From Parapedobacter sp. SGR-10 (lineage in GTDB: Bacteria > Bacteroidota > Bacteroidia > Sphingobacteriales > Sphingobacteriaceae): a DNA stretch of 64,000 nucleotides. The position numbers were made by a program, and so were the translations under genes. The notes under the pieces were generated by a model. It was not told the DNA's origin. It saw nothing but the letters and a program-made list of their open reading frames with translations, and made no database searches. The DNA lies in NCBI RefSeq assembly GCF_011030405.1, contig NZ_JAAJTJ010000002.1, positions 62,001 to 126,000 on the forward strand, written 5' to 3'. Positions 52,594-57,767 of this stretch are shown here, piece by piece (the first letter of the stretch is position 1; each line of letters starts with the position of its first letter).

Positions 52594-53214
52594 TTACTTC
52601 TTTTTATCTCGCCACTTATCGCCTACGGTTTCTTTTGCCTGGTTGACGACTTCTTTGGGTAGTACCTTTATCAATCGGAAGTAATAAGGCCTCCGGCCAC
52701 GGCCAGACTTGGATTTGCCCTTTTTATTGGTTTTTAGTATATACGCTTTGAATGTTTTGGAAAGCCGATCACCTATCAAGGAAGTATCTGTCGTGTCCCC
52801 ACATCTTTCATTTATCATGTCAACAAGTTCTTCAATCAAGAATTCGTCTCCTTCTTTAAAAAACGACAATGCTATAGTAATCTTTTCGTTAAGATCCAGC
52901 GAGTTGTACGTTTCCTGTTTATGAGGGCCTTCTTTTTTTCTATAGGCGATACGATCTTTTGTTTTTTGGGGAAGAGATTCGAAAGCCTGTATTGGATGAT
53001 CAGGGTTGCCGAATTCGTAGTAGTGTAGATTAAAGATTTGGGATATAGCCTCTTGGGTTTCTAGCTCCAGGCTACCAGAATGCTCTAAAATGGAGACGAT
53101 AGTCTTTTTTGTTGACTTGGCCAAATATGCAATATCAATCGGCTCTAATGAAAATGCTTGCATGTATTTTCTTAGTATTTTAGCGTATTCCTTTATTATT
53201 GTTGCATTTGCCAT
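52594..53214 (-). CDS. XRE-like DNA-binding protein with basic C-terminal domain
   Basis: A 206-residue protein. The N-terminal 75 residues resemble an XRE helix-turn-helix (FSLEPIDIAYLAKSTKKTIV ... LETQEAISQIFNLHYYEFGN). The middle is an acidic helical part, and the C-terminus is rich in Lys/Arg (KTNKKGKSKSGRGRRPYYFR). A decayed paralogue lies at 37.8 kb. Upstream are two adjacent palindromes that may be its operators. I know no characterised homologue; a regulator of itself and of neighbouring RNA or repeats is possible. Confidence 0.75.
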   Translation of the reverse strand: MANATIIKEYAKILRKYMQAFSLEPIDIAYLAKSTKKTIVSILEHSGSLELETQEAISQIFNLHYYEFGNPDHPIQAFESLPQKTKDRIAYRKKEGPHKQETYNSLDLNEKITIALSFFKEGDEFLIEELVDMINERCGDTTDTSLIGDRLSKTFKAYILKTNKKGKSKSGRGRRPYYFRLIKVLPKEVVNQAKETVGDKWRDKKK

Positions 53215-53283
53215 TAAAAAATAATAGAAATTTTTTGGATTTTATATTTGTTTTTTTATATTTGTATATTATTAGCGATATAA

Positions 53284-53314
53284 ATAGGGATATCCCTATC
53301 TGTAACGATGTTAC
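53284..53314. promoter_or_regulatory. paired palindromes upstream of the XRE-like gene
   Basis: ATAGGGATATCCCTAT (53284-53299, perfect 16-bp palindrome) and GTAACGATGTTAC (53302-53314, 5-bp arms) lie 70-100 bp upstream of the regulator start. Two TATATTTG boxes on the plus strand lie between (about 53242 and 53258). They are candidate autoregulatory operators. Confidence 0.5.
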
Positions 53315-53392
53315 TCATACAAGAAAACCGTCAATTTTTCCCTATGAGTCGATCGTGAGCTCGCTATCTATTGGATTTTGTTATCTTTGTCG

Positions 53393-53513
53393 ATACTGGT
53401 CCGATAGGGCGAGTCTCATGTAAGTCTTTGGGGAACCATGACTTTGGTCATGGTGGTTCTTGACGGTACCGCTTGCAAAGCATTGAGGCTCGCCCTATTG
53501 GTTTTTAACCAAT
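53393..53513 (+). ncRNA. candidate structured RNA or riboregulatory leader
   Basis: A -7 box TATCTTTG (53382-53389) is followed by a strongly folded stretch. An 18-bp closing stem (53401-53418 with 53484-53501, two G-T pairs) has inner helices TG/CA, CTTTG/CAAAG (53426-53430/53476-53480) and a hairpin CCATGAC/GTCATGG (53436-53442/53447-53453) extended by GAA/TTC. A last hairpin ATTGGTT/AACCAAT (53497-53513) overlaps the 3' arm of the closing stem. Segment 53452-53467 can pair over 16 bp with 53595-53610 in the ORF downstream. It does not match SRP, 6S, tmRNA or the common riboswitches by eye. No Rfam search could be run. Confidence 0.5.
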
Positions 53514-53569
53514 AAGTCTTTCCTCCAAGCTTAGTTGAGTTAAACATTGTCATCATAAATCAAAAGATT

Positions 53570-53686
53570 ATGAAAATGACACGATTAAATAAAAACCGTC
53601 AAGAACTATCCCTACGACTTTCAAAAAGTGTATTGCTGGTTCACTATTCATCATTAATAAAGAACGTCATCACTGCGCCTGAATAA
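53570..53686 (+). CDS. 38-residue ORF downstream of the structured RNA
   Basis: ATG at 53570 opens MKMTRLNKNRQELSLRLSKS, ending NVITAPE. It is basic and not membrane-spanning. Codons 9-14 contain the 16-nt stretch complementary to the upstream structured RNA, so its translation could be controlled by that RNA. Coding status is uncertain, since it is short and has no recognised relatives. Confidence 0.35.
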   Translation: MKMTRLNKNRQELSLRLSKSVLLVHYSSLIKNVITAPE

Positions 53687-53736: not shown

Positions 53737-53764
53737 GTAGAGACGTAAGATCTTACGTCTTTAC
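53737..53764. repeat. 28-bp palindromic repeat (GTAGAGACGTAAGA type)
   Basis: GTAGAGACGTAAGA is followed at once by TCTTACGTCTTTAC, symmetric at 13 of 14 positions. The outer GTAGAGACG is shared with the repeat at 54285, so both belong to one dispersed family. Confidence 0.7.
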
Positions 53765-54284
53765 AGAAAATGGTAAAACGCACCGTTTCCCAAAATATTC
53801 GTACCGACCTTCATTAAAAATTCTGACAATACCAACGATTGACAGATACAATTGGACCGGATTGTTTATTATTCAAGCACAATAAAATTAGCATATCTTT
53901 TCCAATATACCAAAATGATGTGGTTATTTCTCCCCGGAAATGGAGGAGTTGAGAATCAGCTATTTAAAAAAATTAATTGTAGGAGCTTACATGAACAAAA
54001 AGAAACTTTTCAAGAATATTATAAAAAGTCCCGAATAGTTCGGCAGGCTTTCCCATATCGGTGAATGCTGCACGACCACAATTTTAAACCTTATTATAAT
54101 CCGCATTTTCAGCATTCCGACACCAATTCGTGAATTAACTTATTAGACCGATGGCCTGGCATCCGGCCGGATAGAAAGGATGGTATCTTTCTGAAGCGTT
54201 GCCGGGATCAGAGGTCATTTTGAAATAACCTTAAAAATGATGAATTTTGACAAGGGTGGGAGAGGACTGTGCCTGCCACTAAAT

Positions 54285-54333
54285 GTAGAGACGCAATGCC
54301 TGTCTATCCGACAGGTAGACATTGCGTCTCTAC
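54285..54333. repeat. 49-bp inverted repeat of the GTAGAGACG family
   Basis: GTAGAGACGCAATG (54285-54298) pairs perfectly with CATTGCGTCTCTAC (54320-54333); inside, CCTGTC/GACAGG forms a second stem. It lies upstream of the SusC gene. Confidence 0.8.
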
Positions 54334-54427
54334 GAAAAAAACGAAAACACACCACCGCCGTACAACGCGGCGAGATCGGTATCCCCCGATCCGTACAGAT
54401 ATATTTGCAGGTGTGGTTGAAAGTCAC

Positions 54428-54488
54428 ACGTAGGGGCGAAATATCTTTCGCCCAATTGATACGGGCAAATAATCATTTGCCCCTACGT
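54428..54488. repeat. double-hairpin repeat (GTAGGGGCGAA type)
   Basis: ACGTAGG/CCTACGT close the element; inside are two hairpins, GGGCGAAA/TTTCGCCC (54434-54453) and GGGCAAAT/ATTTGCCC (54463-54482). It overlaps the likely start of the SusC gene. Confidence 0.8.
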
Positions 54489-57400
54489 ATATTTTTTATA
54501 TTTTTTGTTTCACTGTTGTTTAGTTTAGAAGCCCGACCGCAGTCTCCCGGAAGCCGGGAGGCTGCCCCCGGGCAGCGACAGGAATTTGTCCGTGAGATCA
54601 ACGGTACGGTGATCGATGCAGTGACCAAAGAGCCGTTGCTCGGTGTGTCGCTAGTGATCTATGTCGACTCGGTCAAGTATGTAGGTCGAGCTAGCCGTGA
54701 CGGAGGACGTTTTGACTTCCGTGGCACACACATCACGCATGGCGTGATGAAGATCAACCACGAAGGCTATATAGCGCAGGAAATCCAATTATCCCCACAG
54801 AACAATGGCCCATATCATATCGCACTACAGCCCGACGCTATTGCCATAGAAGAGGTCGAGGTCATCAGTACGGGTTATTTCTCCGTGCCAAAGGAACGGG
54901 CTACAGGATCTTTTACTCATATTGGTCAGGAACTATTTAGCCGCTCGGTAGGTTCCAATGTCATCGACCGTCTGAAAGACGTTGTACCCGGACTGACTTT
55001 CAATCAGCCCAAGATCGGCAAGTCGACCTTTTTCAACGAGCCAAGCATCTCGATACGGGGGCGCAGTACCATCCGGGGCAATGCCGAGCCTTTGATTATC
55101 CTCGATAATTTCCCCTATGAGGGTGATATTAATGACATCAATCCCGAAGACATCGAGAGCGTGACCATCCTACAAGATGCGGCGGCCGCCTCGATATGGG
55201 GTGCACGTGCAGGCAATGGGGTGATCGTACTGACCTCCAAGAGCGGTAAACTAGATCGGCCGCTACAGATGACCGTACACTCGGATCTCTCCATCTCGGC
55301 CAAGCCCGATCTGTACTATACGCCCACGATGTCGATGGACGACTTTATCGAGGTAGAGCGATTTCTGTTTGACAAAGGTGCATGGAATGCCTATATCAAC
55401 CAAGGGTACAGCTATATTACGCCTGCTGTCGAACTATTGAAACAACACCGCGATGGTGATCTGACCGATACGGAACTGGAAGCGGCACTGGACGTACTCA
55501 AAGGACAGGACGTCCGCCGTGATCTGTCGAAGTACTTTTATCGCCCGGCATCACTGCGCAAGCTGTCGGCCAGCTTTGACGGCGGTGGTAGGTATAACAC
55601 CTATTATTTTTCAGCAGGTTATGACGAGAACAGGAGCACCCAACAGGACAGCGACAACAAACGTATCAGTCTCAATGCAAGAAACAGTTATAGGCTGTGG
55701 AAGGATAGATTACAGTTTGACATGGGAGTGATGTTCAGTAAGAGTATAAGCCATAATCAACGTCTATCGGGCAGTCAATATAATGTGCTGTACGATCGCT
55801 TGGCGGATGATCAGGGCAATCCGCTATCTATCGGCGGATGGAACAGATTCAGGCAGAGCTATATCGATACTGCCGGAAATGGACTGCTGAAAGATTGGAA
55901 CTATAGGCCATTGCAGGAGTTGGGGATGAATACGTTTCGTAACGATGACCTGTCTTATCAAGTCAATACAACGCTACGGGTACGACCATTCGATTGGTTG
56001 ACGCTGTCCGTTCGATACAGATATGCTGCTGGAAATGGAAACTTATATAGTGTGTGGTCTGAAGAGGCTTTTCAGATGCGTAATATGTTTAATCAGTTTT
56101 CGACCATAGATCGTATGACAAATATCGTCACTACAGCTATTCCCTCCGGCGGGCAATTGAATACAACGAGGCATGCCTCTGACCACCACAATGCGCGTAT
56201 TCAGGCTGATCTAAATCACTCGTGGGGAAGACACAAAATGGCTGTCCTGGGTGGAGCTGAAGTCAATAGTTTAAGTGGGTTGAGTGAAATCGATGCCACG
56301 AGGCTTGGTTACCAGTCGGGCACGGAGACTTTCACGCCGATAGATCTGACTGGACGATACCCACAATACCATTTATCCTCGTTAGGAACCTTGTCTGTAG
56401 CTCCGATCCAGCCAACACGTGATCGCAGTGTCAACCGAAATGTGCTACTGTTTGGAAATGCTTCGTACACTTACAGCGATCGTTATACAGCCACAATCTC
56501 CGTAAGGAAAGATGAGGCTAATATCTTTGGCGTGGAAGCCAACCGCAGGGGGAAACCTTTCTGGTCATCGGGATTGCTCTGGCATATACACGAGGAGGAT
56601 TTTGCCCGTGTACCTTGGCTACAAAGGTTGTCATTGCGTGGTACACACGGTATGATGGGCAATGTGAGCACGGCATCGGCATATCTGACATCTATGGGGG
56701 CTTTCACTCCTTATTTCTATACCGATAGGGTGTACCAGTCGATAAGCACGCCCCCAAACCCGATGCTGTCATGGGAGAAGGTGCAGATGACAAATGTGGC
56801 CGTTGATTTTGCGTTATGGCAGGGTGGGCTGTCCGGTTCGGTAGAACGCTACTTTCGGAAGTCTACTGATCTACTGAGTTACAATCCGATGGCACCCTCA
56901 TCGGGGGTATCCCAATTGTATGGCAATTGGTCATCCATGAAGTCTTCGGGATGGGATATCTCGTTGACTAGTCATCAGCTACGGGGCCATTTTTCATGGT
57001 CGTCCAATTTTATATTCAGTCATATCAAAGATATGGTGACCGATTATTATCAAAAACCCAGCAGCGATAGATTGTATCTGACATCCAATATCGGACAGTA
57101 CCCGATCGAGGGAAAACCCCTTAATAGCATTTATTCGCTACGGTATGCTGGCCTGGATGAAGTTGGAGACCCATTGGGCTATATAGGTGGAGAGGAAAGC
57201 AAAAATTATACGGCCATTTACAATAATACCCCACTGTCCGAATATAGGTATCATGGTAGGGCAACACCGGCTACTTTCGGTAGCCTGCGCAATACTTTGG
57301 GGTATAAAGGTGCCGAACTCTCCTTTACCCTTTCTTATCATTTAGGCTATTACTTTCGTCAGCAGGCTTTCTCTTCATCTATGCTCTACAGTGTATTGGG

Positions 57401-57767
57401 ATACGGTACATCTGCATTTCAGTCACATTATGCCGATCGTTGGAAACAAGCTGGTGATGAAATGAAAACACGTGTGCCGGCGGCTTTGTATCCAGTGAAC
57501 GGCAATCGTGAGGTCTTCTATGGTATGGCCGAAGACCATGTACAGCGTGGGGATCATATAAGATTGCGTGATGTACGTATTGCTTACAGTTTTCCGGAGT
57601 TGAAGACGAAGTCCATAAGGGCGATCCAATTGTATGGATATGTGGATAATGTAGGCGTACTATGGGTCGCCAACAGAGAAGGTTATGACCCACAGGCTGT
57701 ACCTGACGTGGGAATGATCTATCCTATACCGATAACCTTTGCATTTGGTCTTAACATTAAAATATAA
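54477..57767 (+). CDS. SusC/RagA-type TonB-dependent outer membrane receptor
   Basis: About 1096 residues from TTG at 54477; the frame is open from 54237. It has a hydrophobic leader (RIFFIFFVSLLFSLEARPQS), a carboxypeptidase-like beta-sandwich (EINGTVIDAVTKEPLLGVSL), then the TonB plug with SIRGRSTIRGNAEPLIILDN and DAAAASIWGARAGNGVIVLT, and a 22-strand barrel. With SusD it takes up large nutrients across the outer membrane. The first 80 codons of the longest frame merely translate two inverted repeats, so the true start is probably the TTG or a nearby codon, placed inside the second repeat. Heads the susC-susD-tlpA unit. Confidence 0.92.
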   Translation: MPLRIFFIFFVSLLFSLEARPQSPGSREAAPGQRQEFVREINGTVIDAVTKEPLLGVSLVIYVDSVKYVGRASRDGGRFDFRGTHITHGVMKINHEGYIAQEIQLSPQNNGPYHIALQPDAIAIEEVEVISTGYFSVPKERATGSFTHIGQELFSRSVGSNVIDRLKDVVPGLTFNQPKIGKSTFFNEPSISIRGRSTIRGNAEPLIILDNFPYEGDINDINPEDIESVTILQDAAAASIWGARAGNGVIVLTSKSGKLDRPLQMTVHSDLSISAKPDLYYTPTMSMDDFIEVERFLFDKGAWNAYINQGYSYITPAVELLKQHRDGDLTDTELEAALDVLKGQDVRRDLSKYFYRPASLRKLSASFDGGGRYNTYYFSAGYDENRSTQQDSDNKRISLNARNSYRLWKDRLQFDMGVMFSKSISHNQRLSGSQYNVLYDRLADDQGNPLSIGGWNRFRQSYIDTAGNGLLKDWNYRPLQELGMNTFRNDDLSYQVNTTLRVRPFDWLTLSVRYRYAAGNGNLYSVWSEEAFQMRNMFNQFSTIDRMTNIVTTAIPSGGQLNTTRHASDHHNARIQADLNHSWGRHKMAVLGGAEVNSLSGLSEIDATRLGYQSGTETFTPIDLTGRYPQYHLSSLGTLSVAPIQPTRDRSVNRNVLLFGNASYTYSDRYTATISVRKDEANIFGVEANRRGKPFWSSGLLWHIHEEDFARVPWLQRLSLRGTHGMMGNVSTASAYLTSMGAFTPYFYTDRVYQSISTPPNPMLSWEKVQMTNVAVDFALWQGGLSGSVERYFRKSTDLLSYNPMAPSSGVSQLYGNWSSMKSSGWDISLTSHQLRGHFSWSSNFIFSHIKDMVTDYYQKPSSDRLYLTSNIGQYPIEGKPLNSIYSLRYAGLDEVGDPLGYIGGEESKNYTAIYNNTPLSEYRYHGRATPATFGSLRNTLGYKGAELSFTLSYHLGYYFRQQAFSSSMLYSVLGYGTSAFQSHYADRWKQAGDEMKTRVPAALYPVNGNREVFYGMAEDHVQRGDHIRLRDVRIAYSFPELKTKSIRAIQLYGYVDNVGVLWVANREGYDPQAVPDVGMIYPIPITFAFGLNIKI

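What the first reader, a model, noticed from the sequence alone, without database searches (positions are those of the whole stretch)
53382..53686. Undescribed structured RNA complementary to a downstream mini-ORF
A -7 box is followed by about 110 nt with an 18-bp closing stem and several nested helices. The 3' arm of the closing stem competes with a terminal hairpin, and 16 nt (53452-53467) can pair with codons 9-14 of a 38-codon ORF starting 57 nt later. A 12-nt perfect core match at this distance is unlikely by chance. It could be a riboregulatory leader, a cis-acting switch or an sRNA with a linked target. It is not any RNA class I can recognise.
Basis: partly seen in the sequence, partly recalled or inferred. 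Interest (0 to 1): 0.75.

Follow-up and report, generated by a model that had tools for sequence, protein, structure and literature searches.

The report
Undescribed RNA-and-peptide leader of SusC transporters
In front of certain nutrient-uptake genes, Sphingobacterium, Pedobacter and their relatives carry an undescribed RNA of about 250 bases that can fold in two conserved ways, followed by a tiny peptide gene whose last residues are strictly conserved, which looks like a new on/off control for an outer-membrane transporter.

Summary
The structured RNA is real, larger than reported, and not in Rfam. It spans about 53305-53550. Copies occur in 66 of 94 genomes of the same genus (Sphingobacterium), in 9 of 25 genera of the family, and rarely elsewhere. 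An upstream strand (A) pairs with the same middle strand (B) and is about as well supported, so two mutually exclusive folds are conserved.

The '-7 box' is the apical loop of the A:B hairpin; the conserved promoter lies about 125 nt upstream. The 12-nt match to the mini-ORF occurs only in this window (1 of 58 loci) and is not the mechanism.

The 38-codon ORF is a conserved leader peptide. Its last eight codons are under strong purifying selection (K-N-[VI]-x-x-x-P-x-stop, penultimate Pro in 47 of 47), while its N-terminal part looks neutral. In 38 of 41 loci a SusC-type TonB receptor follows on the same strand, and a small HTH-type gene usually diverges upstream.

Best reading: a cis-acting leader in which a bistable RNA and a regulatory nascent peptide control a SusC/SusD operon. 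Expression, arrest and ligand are untested.

The parts
52594..53214 (-). divergent 206-aa gene; its BLAST cluster includes proteins with an N-terminal HTH_3 domain
   Evidence: No Pfam or NCBIfam hit for the window protein itself. It clusters with upstream proteins of 14 loci, one of which scores HTH_3 2e-9.
53257..53264 (+). probable -7 box (TATATTTG) of the leader; a second TATATTTG lies at 53243-53250
   Evidence: TAnnTTTG at this relative place in 60 of 63 copies
53274..53278 (+). AGCGA motif near the inferred transcript start, present downstream of the -7 box in nearly all copies; a sequence-variable hairpin follows (53284-53299)
   Evidence: sequence listing of 63 loci; inverted repeat I3
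53305..53550 (+). domain D1, the conserved structured RNA of about 250 nt
   Evidence: same fold in 14 of 14 copies; CM search finds >100 copies in the genus
53305..53317 (+). 5' strand of closing helix P1 (partner 53536-53550); 53313-53319 can instead pair with 53343-53349 (hairpin H0)
   Evidence: fold; P1 little covarying because little varying; H0 90% of cells paired with changed pairs
53320..53323 (+). 5' strand of P2 (partner 53472-53475)
   Evidence: 90% of cells paired against 52% shuffled, all 4 pairs with changes on both sides
53327..53334 (+). 5' strand of P3 (ACCGUCAA; partner 53460-53467 UUGACGGU)
   Evidence: 99% of cells paired in 51 sequences, 7 of 8 pairs with changes on both sides
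53354..53377 (+). strand A; pairs with strand B (53399-53418) to form hairpin P5
   Evidence: 93% of cells paired, 13 of 22 pairs with changes on both sides
53382..53389 (+).
   Evidence: consensus kept in 30 of 63 copies
53401..53418 (+). strand B; pairs either with A or with A'
   Evidence: both pairings covary
53435..53454 (+). hairpin P6
   Evidence: 8 of 8 pairs with changes on both sides
   Evidence: B:A' 95% of cells paired, 14 of 18 pairs with compensatory changes; 97.6% against 28-49% when slid
53495..53513 (+). terminal hairpin P7, competing with B for A'
   Evidence: folds; weak covariation signal
53570..53686 (+). leader-peptide ORF, 38 codons (alternative in-frame ATG at 53576)
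   Evidence: homologous ORF of 34-47 codons in 58 of 63 loci
53617..53629 (+). small hairpin inside the ORF (ACUUU-CAA-AAAGU)
   Evidence: hairpin centred at this distance from the stop in 36 of 58 loci, 5.9 expected from codon shuffles
53660..53686 (+). conserved C-terminal codons KNVITAPE-stop
   Evidence: last 8 codons syn:nonsyn 1867:949 against 770:2046 expected; penultimate Pro in 47 of 47
53783..53943 (+). place of the downstream stem D3; in the window only a weak candidate (53783-53790 / 53936-53943) without a U-run
   Evidence: canonical ACCGACCU..AGGUCGGU plus U-rich run in 37 of 58 loci
54237..57767 (+). SusC/RagA-type TonB-linked outer membrane protein
   Evidence: TIGR04056, 451.6 bits
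57773..59113 (+). SusD-like protein
   Evidence: weak NF033071 hit; position after SusC, conserved as cluster c1

Best explanation
The sequence is the 5' leader of a SusC/SusD-type TonB-receptor operon. Transcription starts from a conserved TAnnTTTG promoter near 53257, in an intergenic region shared with a divergent, mostly HTH-type gene. The leader peptide starts about 20 nt after helix P1, so ribosome loading there should disturb P1 and couple the RNA switch to translation. The peptide is conserved only at its C-terminus (K-N-[VI]-x-x-x-P-x-stop), which fits a regulatory nascent chain that slows or arrests the ribosome at or near the stop codon. The ribosome's position would then decide how the downstream leader folds (in most copies a stem ACCGACC/GGUCGGU followed by a U-rich run) and so whether the SusC operon is expressed. 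SHOWN by sequence comparison: the RNA structure, both alternative pairings, the transcribed strand, the coding constraint on the peptide end, and the linkage to SusC. INFERRED: cis action, ribosome arrest, the link between the RNA switch and peptide translation, and the kind of output (transcription read-through or translation). UNKNOWN: the signal.
For: Structure: 44 pairs, 23 with compensatory changes, 95.9% of cells paired against 35-45% when slid. P2 and P3 covary strongly. A:B and B:A' both conserved. G-U far exceeds A-C in paired columns (183:5 for A:B, 92:9 for B:A'), so the + strand is the RNA. In the nascent window RNA ending at 53503 the two folds differ by 1.2 kcal/mol; in full D1 by about 11. 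Cis linkage: SusC on the same strand within 6.5 kb in 38 of 41 loci; two of the three exceptions have also lost the mini-ORF. Peptide: 34-47 codons in 58 of 63 loci; purifying selection on the last 8 codons, none seen on the N-terminal part. Distant copies outside the family carry 14-15-residue ORFs ending ..TKPP-stop and ..IGPPE-stop (sequence). Downstream stem in 37 of 58 loci with on average 4.6 U in the next 7 nt.
Against: No transcript data were available. The A:B fold is the more stable one in full D1 in every copy (difference median 19.7, minimum 3.7 kcal/mol), so B:A' would need kinetic trapping, a ribosome or a ligand. The downstream stem is not canonical in the window itself. Penultimate Pro is suggestive of, not proof of, arrest; in TnaC the Pro is the last residue (PMC8429421). 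The peptide-frame choice favoured ORFs with this ending, although the unscored list shows the same peptides.
Confidence: 0.55

Rival explanations
1. D1 is a metabolite riboswitch: the multi-branch fold is an aptamer, and B switching between A and A' is the expression platform for a transporter. The small ORF merely couples translation.
For: A large covarying RNA with two exclusive folds upstream of a TonB-dependent transporter; invariant loop positions.
Against: It does not explain selection on the peptide's last eight codons. Copies sit before different operon make-ups with different divergent regulators, which makes one shared ligand less natural. No Rfam match.
Confidence: 0.2
2. D1 is a separate trans-acting or antisense small RNA that happens to lie before susC, and the mini-ORF encodes a free microprotein.
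For: Bacteroides has susC-associated small RNAs (DonS family, PMC7366714). Up to 5 copies per genome would allow cross-talk.
Against: Same strand and order with susC in 38 of 41 loci. The copies' P3 strands differ but match within each copy. No conserved complement to the ORF. The peptide's N-terminal part is unconstrained in sequence.
Confidence: 0.15
3. D1 binds a protein (for example the divergent HTH-type protein or another regulator) and acts as a protein-responsive leader.
For: A divergent small gene, HTH-type in most tested representatives, is present upstream in nearly all loci.
Against: The upstream proteins belong to several unrelated sequence clusters while the RNA stays the same, so a common protein-RNA interface with them is unlikely.
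Confidence: 0.07
4. One reading: 53452-53467 pairs with codons 9-14 of the mini-ORF to block its translation.
For: 12-nt perfect complement in the window, not reached in 2000 shuffles.
Against: Present in 1 of 58 loci; in the others the longest complement is at most 8 nt. The same RNA segment is already committed to P3, which is 99% conserved.
Confidence: 0.03

Closest known systems
TnaC / SpeFL-type leader peptides (termination arrest, attenuation)
   Same: Short ORF in a long 5' leader of a transport or metabolism operon; conserved C-terminal end; Pro at or next to the stop codon (TnaC).
   Different: No sequence similarity noted; peptide 34-47 aa with the K-N-[VI]-x-x-x-P-x motif; preceded by a large bistable RNA, which I do not know from TnaC or SpeFL; arrest and ligand not shown; different phylum.
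Riboswitches before TonB-dependent receptors (for example cobalamin riboswitch / btuB, from general knowledge)
   Same: Large structured leader RNA with exclusive pairings before an outer-membrane transporter.
   Different: No Rfam match at gathering score, and only chance-level matches by E-value; conserved peptide between RNA and gene; ligand unknown.
DonS family of PUL antisense RNAs in Bacteroides
   Same: RNA linked to susC genes in Bacteroidota.
   Different: DonS-type RNAs are 78-128 nt and divergently encoded to susC (PMC7366714); this is about 250 nt, same strand, and linked to a peptide ORF.
Pedo-repair RNA motif (RF01715)
   Same: Structured RNA candidate from Pedobacter (PMC2864571).
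   Different: Its Rfam model does not match here.

Membership tests
Leader-peptide attenuator (TnaC/SpeFL-like) | short ORF between promoter and first structural gene, same strand | tested here: met
   58 of 63 loci with the ORF; SusC downstream in 38 of 41
Leader-peptide attenuator (TnaC/SpeFL-like) | selection on the peptide sequence near the stop | tested here: met
   syn:nonsyn 1867:949 against 770:2046 expected; Pro at -2 in 47 of 47
Leader-peptide attenuator (TnaC/SpeFL-like) | ribosome arrest at a defined codon | not testable with these tools
   needs toeprinting or ribosome profiling
Leader-peptide attenuator (TnaC/SpeFL-like) | termination signal between peptide and operon | tested here: inconclusive
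   stem plus U-rich run in 37 of 58 loci, not canonical in the window
Riboswitch | conserved covarying RNA with alternative folds in a 5' leader | tested here: met
Riboswitch | specific small-molecule binding | not testable with these tools
   needs in-line probing or ITC
Any family in Rfam 15 | score at or above the gathering threshold | tested here: not met
   no hit at D1 in the window or in ten homologous loci
DonS-type antisense RNA | encoded divergently / antisense to susC | tested here: not met
   same strand as susC; G-U over A-C bias fixes the + strand

The most novel reading that the evidence does not exclude
A new class of two-part leader: a 250-nt bistable RNA and a nascent-chain sensor peptide working as one switch, spread over Sphingobacteriaceae and paired with interchangeable HTH-type regulators, controlling a subset of SusC/SusD transporters.
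Probability: 0.4. Interest if true: 0.85.

Novelty: new variant of a known kind. Interest (0 to 1): 0.74.

Why it matters
SusC/SusD transporters are central to nutrient acquisition in Bacteroidota; this genome alone has at least 56 SusC genes, but only one copy of this leader. An RNA leader with a conserved peptide would add a layer of control for SusC operons that, as far as the searches here show, has not been described, and possibly a nascent-chain sensor in this phylum. The family is large and covaries strongly, so structure and peptide function can be tested directly.

Tried and rejected
(3) Reverse-strand RNA: rejected by G-U against A-C counts. (4) Known Rfam class: none. (5) First MAFFT alignment mixed orientations because loci matched on '-' were not turned; redone. 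(6) Plasmid- or phage-borne element: no BLAST match in either collection. (7) Pattern scan of genome contigs: many hits expected by chance; only those confirmed by the covariance model were used. (8) Literature searches for an earlier description found none in the open-access library; subscription papers and preprints were not searchable. (9) A single common structure for the whole region between mini-ORF and susC was not obtained; only the D3 stem is supported. (10) A dCas12f/guide-RNA link to SusC regulation was considered and searched in the literature without result; no such gene was seen next to the element.

Full report
CHECK OF THE OBSERVATION. The stem, the competing terminal hairpin, the mini-ORF and the 12-nt complement are all in the sequence at the stated places. 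The region folds far better than shuffles (z = -5.5). No Rfam family matches it, and none matches ten homologous loci at gathering score.

HOMOLOGUES. A BLAST of 401 nt against related genomes found 15 matches besides the window's own, all within the genus. After turning the minus-strand loci, 14 full copies folded individually into one architecture. A covariance model of the core (R1) found copies in 66 of 94 genomes of the genus, up to five per genome. It found copies in 96 of 301 genomes of the family (9 of 25 genera) and in 5 of 395 genomes drawn from the class, two of them outside the family. Named records confirmed by the model include Sphingobacterium, Pedobacter, Parapedobacter and Sinomicrobium weinanense (to my knowledge a member of Flavobacteriaceae), whose copy has neither a clear leader ORF nor susC nearby. 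That the window's genus is Sphingobacterium is inferred from these: a same-genus genome shares contig length and locus with Sphingobacterium sp. SGG-5.

STRUCTURE. With 14 sequences, 23 of 44 pairs have compensatory changes and 95.9% of cells pair, against 35-45% when partners are slid. With 51 sequences, P3 (53327-53334 with 53460-53467) is 99% paired with 7 of 8 pairs changed on both sides, and P2 is 90% paired against 52% for shuffles. Closing helix P1 is 84-85% paired but no better than shuffles, because its sequence hardly varies. The alternative A:B hairpin is 93% paired with 13 of 22 pairs changed on both sides. A second exclusive pair exists at the 5' end: ACUC pairs with the 3' GAGU (P1) or with the nearby UAUGAGU (H0). 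G-U far outnumbers A-C in the paired columns, so the + strand is the functional RNA. In silico, A:B is the more stable fold of the full domain (median difference 19.7 kcal/mol over 51 copies).

PROMOTER. TAnnTTTG is the published Bacteroidetes -7 consensus (PMC7366714).

CONTEXT. Of 41 loci (40 fetched with 12 kb, plus the window), 38 have a SusC-type gene within 6.5 kb on the same strand, usually followed by SusD and sometimes preceded by a thioredoxin-like gene or one of two short unnamed genes. Nearly all have a small divergent gene upstream. Of eight representatives tested, five pass HTH_3 and one passes HTH_26, one is sub-threshold, and one has no HTH hit. They fall into several unrelated clusters. 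The window's own upstream protein has no Pfam hit but belongs to the cluster of one that does. The window genome has at least 56 SusC genes but one copy of the RNA.

THE MINI-ORF. 58 of 63 loci have an ORF of 34-47 codons (35-38 typical) at the same place. Its last eight codons show 1867 synonymous to 949 non-synonymous single differences, against 770:2046 expected. The penultimate residue is Pro in 47 of 47 non-redundant copies, with all four Pro codons in use. Lys and Asn at -8 and -7 are conserved in 41 and 43. The N-terminal part shows no selection on the protein sequence (652:2414 against 687:2379). A small hairpin sits about 66 nt before the end of the ORF in 36 of 58 loci, against 5.9 expected. 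The two copies outside the family carry ORFs of 14-15 residues ending in PP-stop and PPE-stop (read from the sequence; loci).

DOWNSTREAM. A long-range stem ACCGACCU/AGGUCGGU with changed pairs (for example CCGAUCUG/CAGAUCGG and CCAGCCCUU/AAGGGCUGG) begins roughly 80-165 nt after the peptide stop in 37 of 58 loci and is followed by a U-rich run. In the window this part is divergent.

INTERPRETATION. Conserved order, strand and distance to susC favour a cis-acting leader. A peptide constrained at its C-terminus, with Pro next to the stop, is what one expects of a regulatory nascent chain. [quoted passage not shown] The bistable RNA ends about 20 nt before the peptide start, so translation initiation and helix P1 are likely to compete; this coupling is inference. 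Arrest, output and signal are untested.

NOVELTY. It works like known attenuators and riboswitches, but no described family was found with this RNA, this peptide or this combination. I rate it a new variant of a known kind. Searches covered Rfam 15 and open-access papers only.

Noticed in passing
window 53991-54038 (+): A second short ORF, MNKKKLFKNIIKSPE-stop, ends in the same K-N-I-I-K-S-P-E-stop motif as the leader peptides; no other locus read here has a second copy.
   Followed up: partly
window 53740-53770, 54285-54336, 54427-54486: Short hairpin repeats (GTAGAGACGYAA.. and GTAGGGGCGAAA.. types) inside the leader and the 5' end of the susC reading frame, resembling small mobile repeats.
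   Followed up: no
window 54237-54540; first downstream gene of many homologous loci: The first gene's frame begins about 100 codons before the signal peptide in the window, and its start carries a conserved motif (ATGCGAAAATTACGCAAAGGGGAGAGCTATG in relatives) with an SD-like run, sometimes outside the coding frame.
   Followed up: partly
63 homologous loci, about 12 nt after the -7 box: AGCGAC motif conserved next to the inferred transcript start irrespective of which divergent gene is present.
   Followed up: no
L071, L078: RNA domain retained but mini-ORF and susC lost or rearranged, which fits decay of the RNA-peptide-susC unit.
   Followed up: no
L172 (Sinomicrobium weinanense), L100, L101: Copies outside Sphingobacteriaceae, suggesting horizontal transfer; L100 and L101 have much shorter leader ORFs.
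   Followed up: partly
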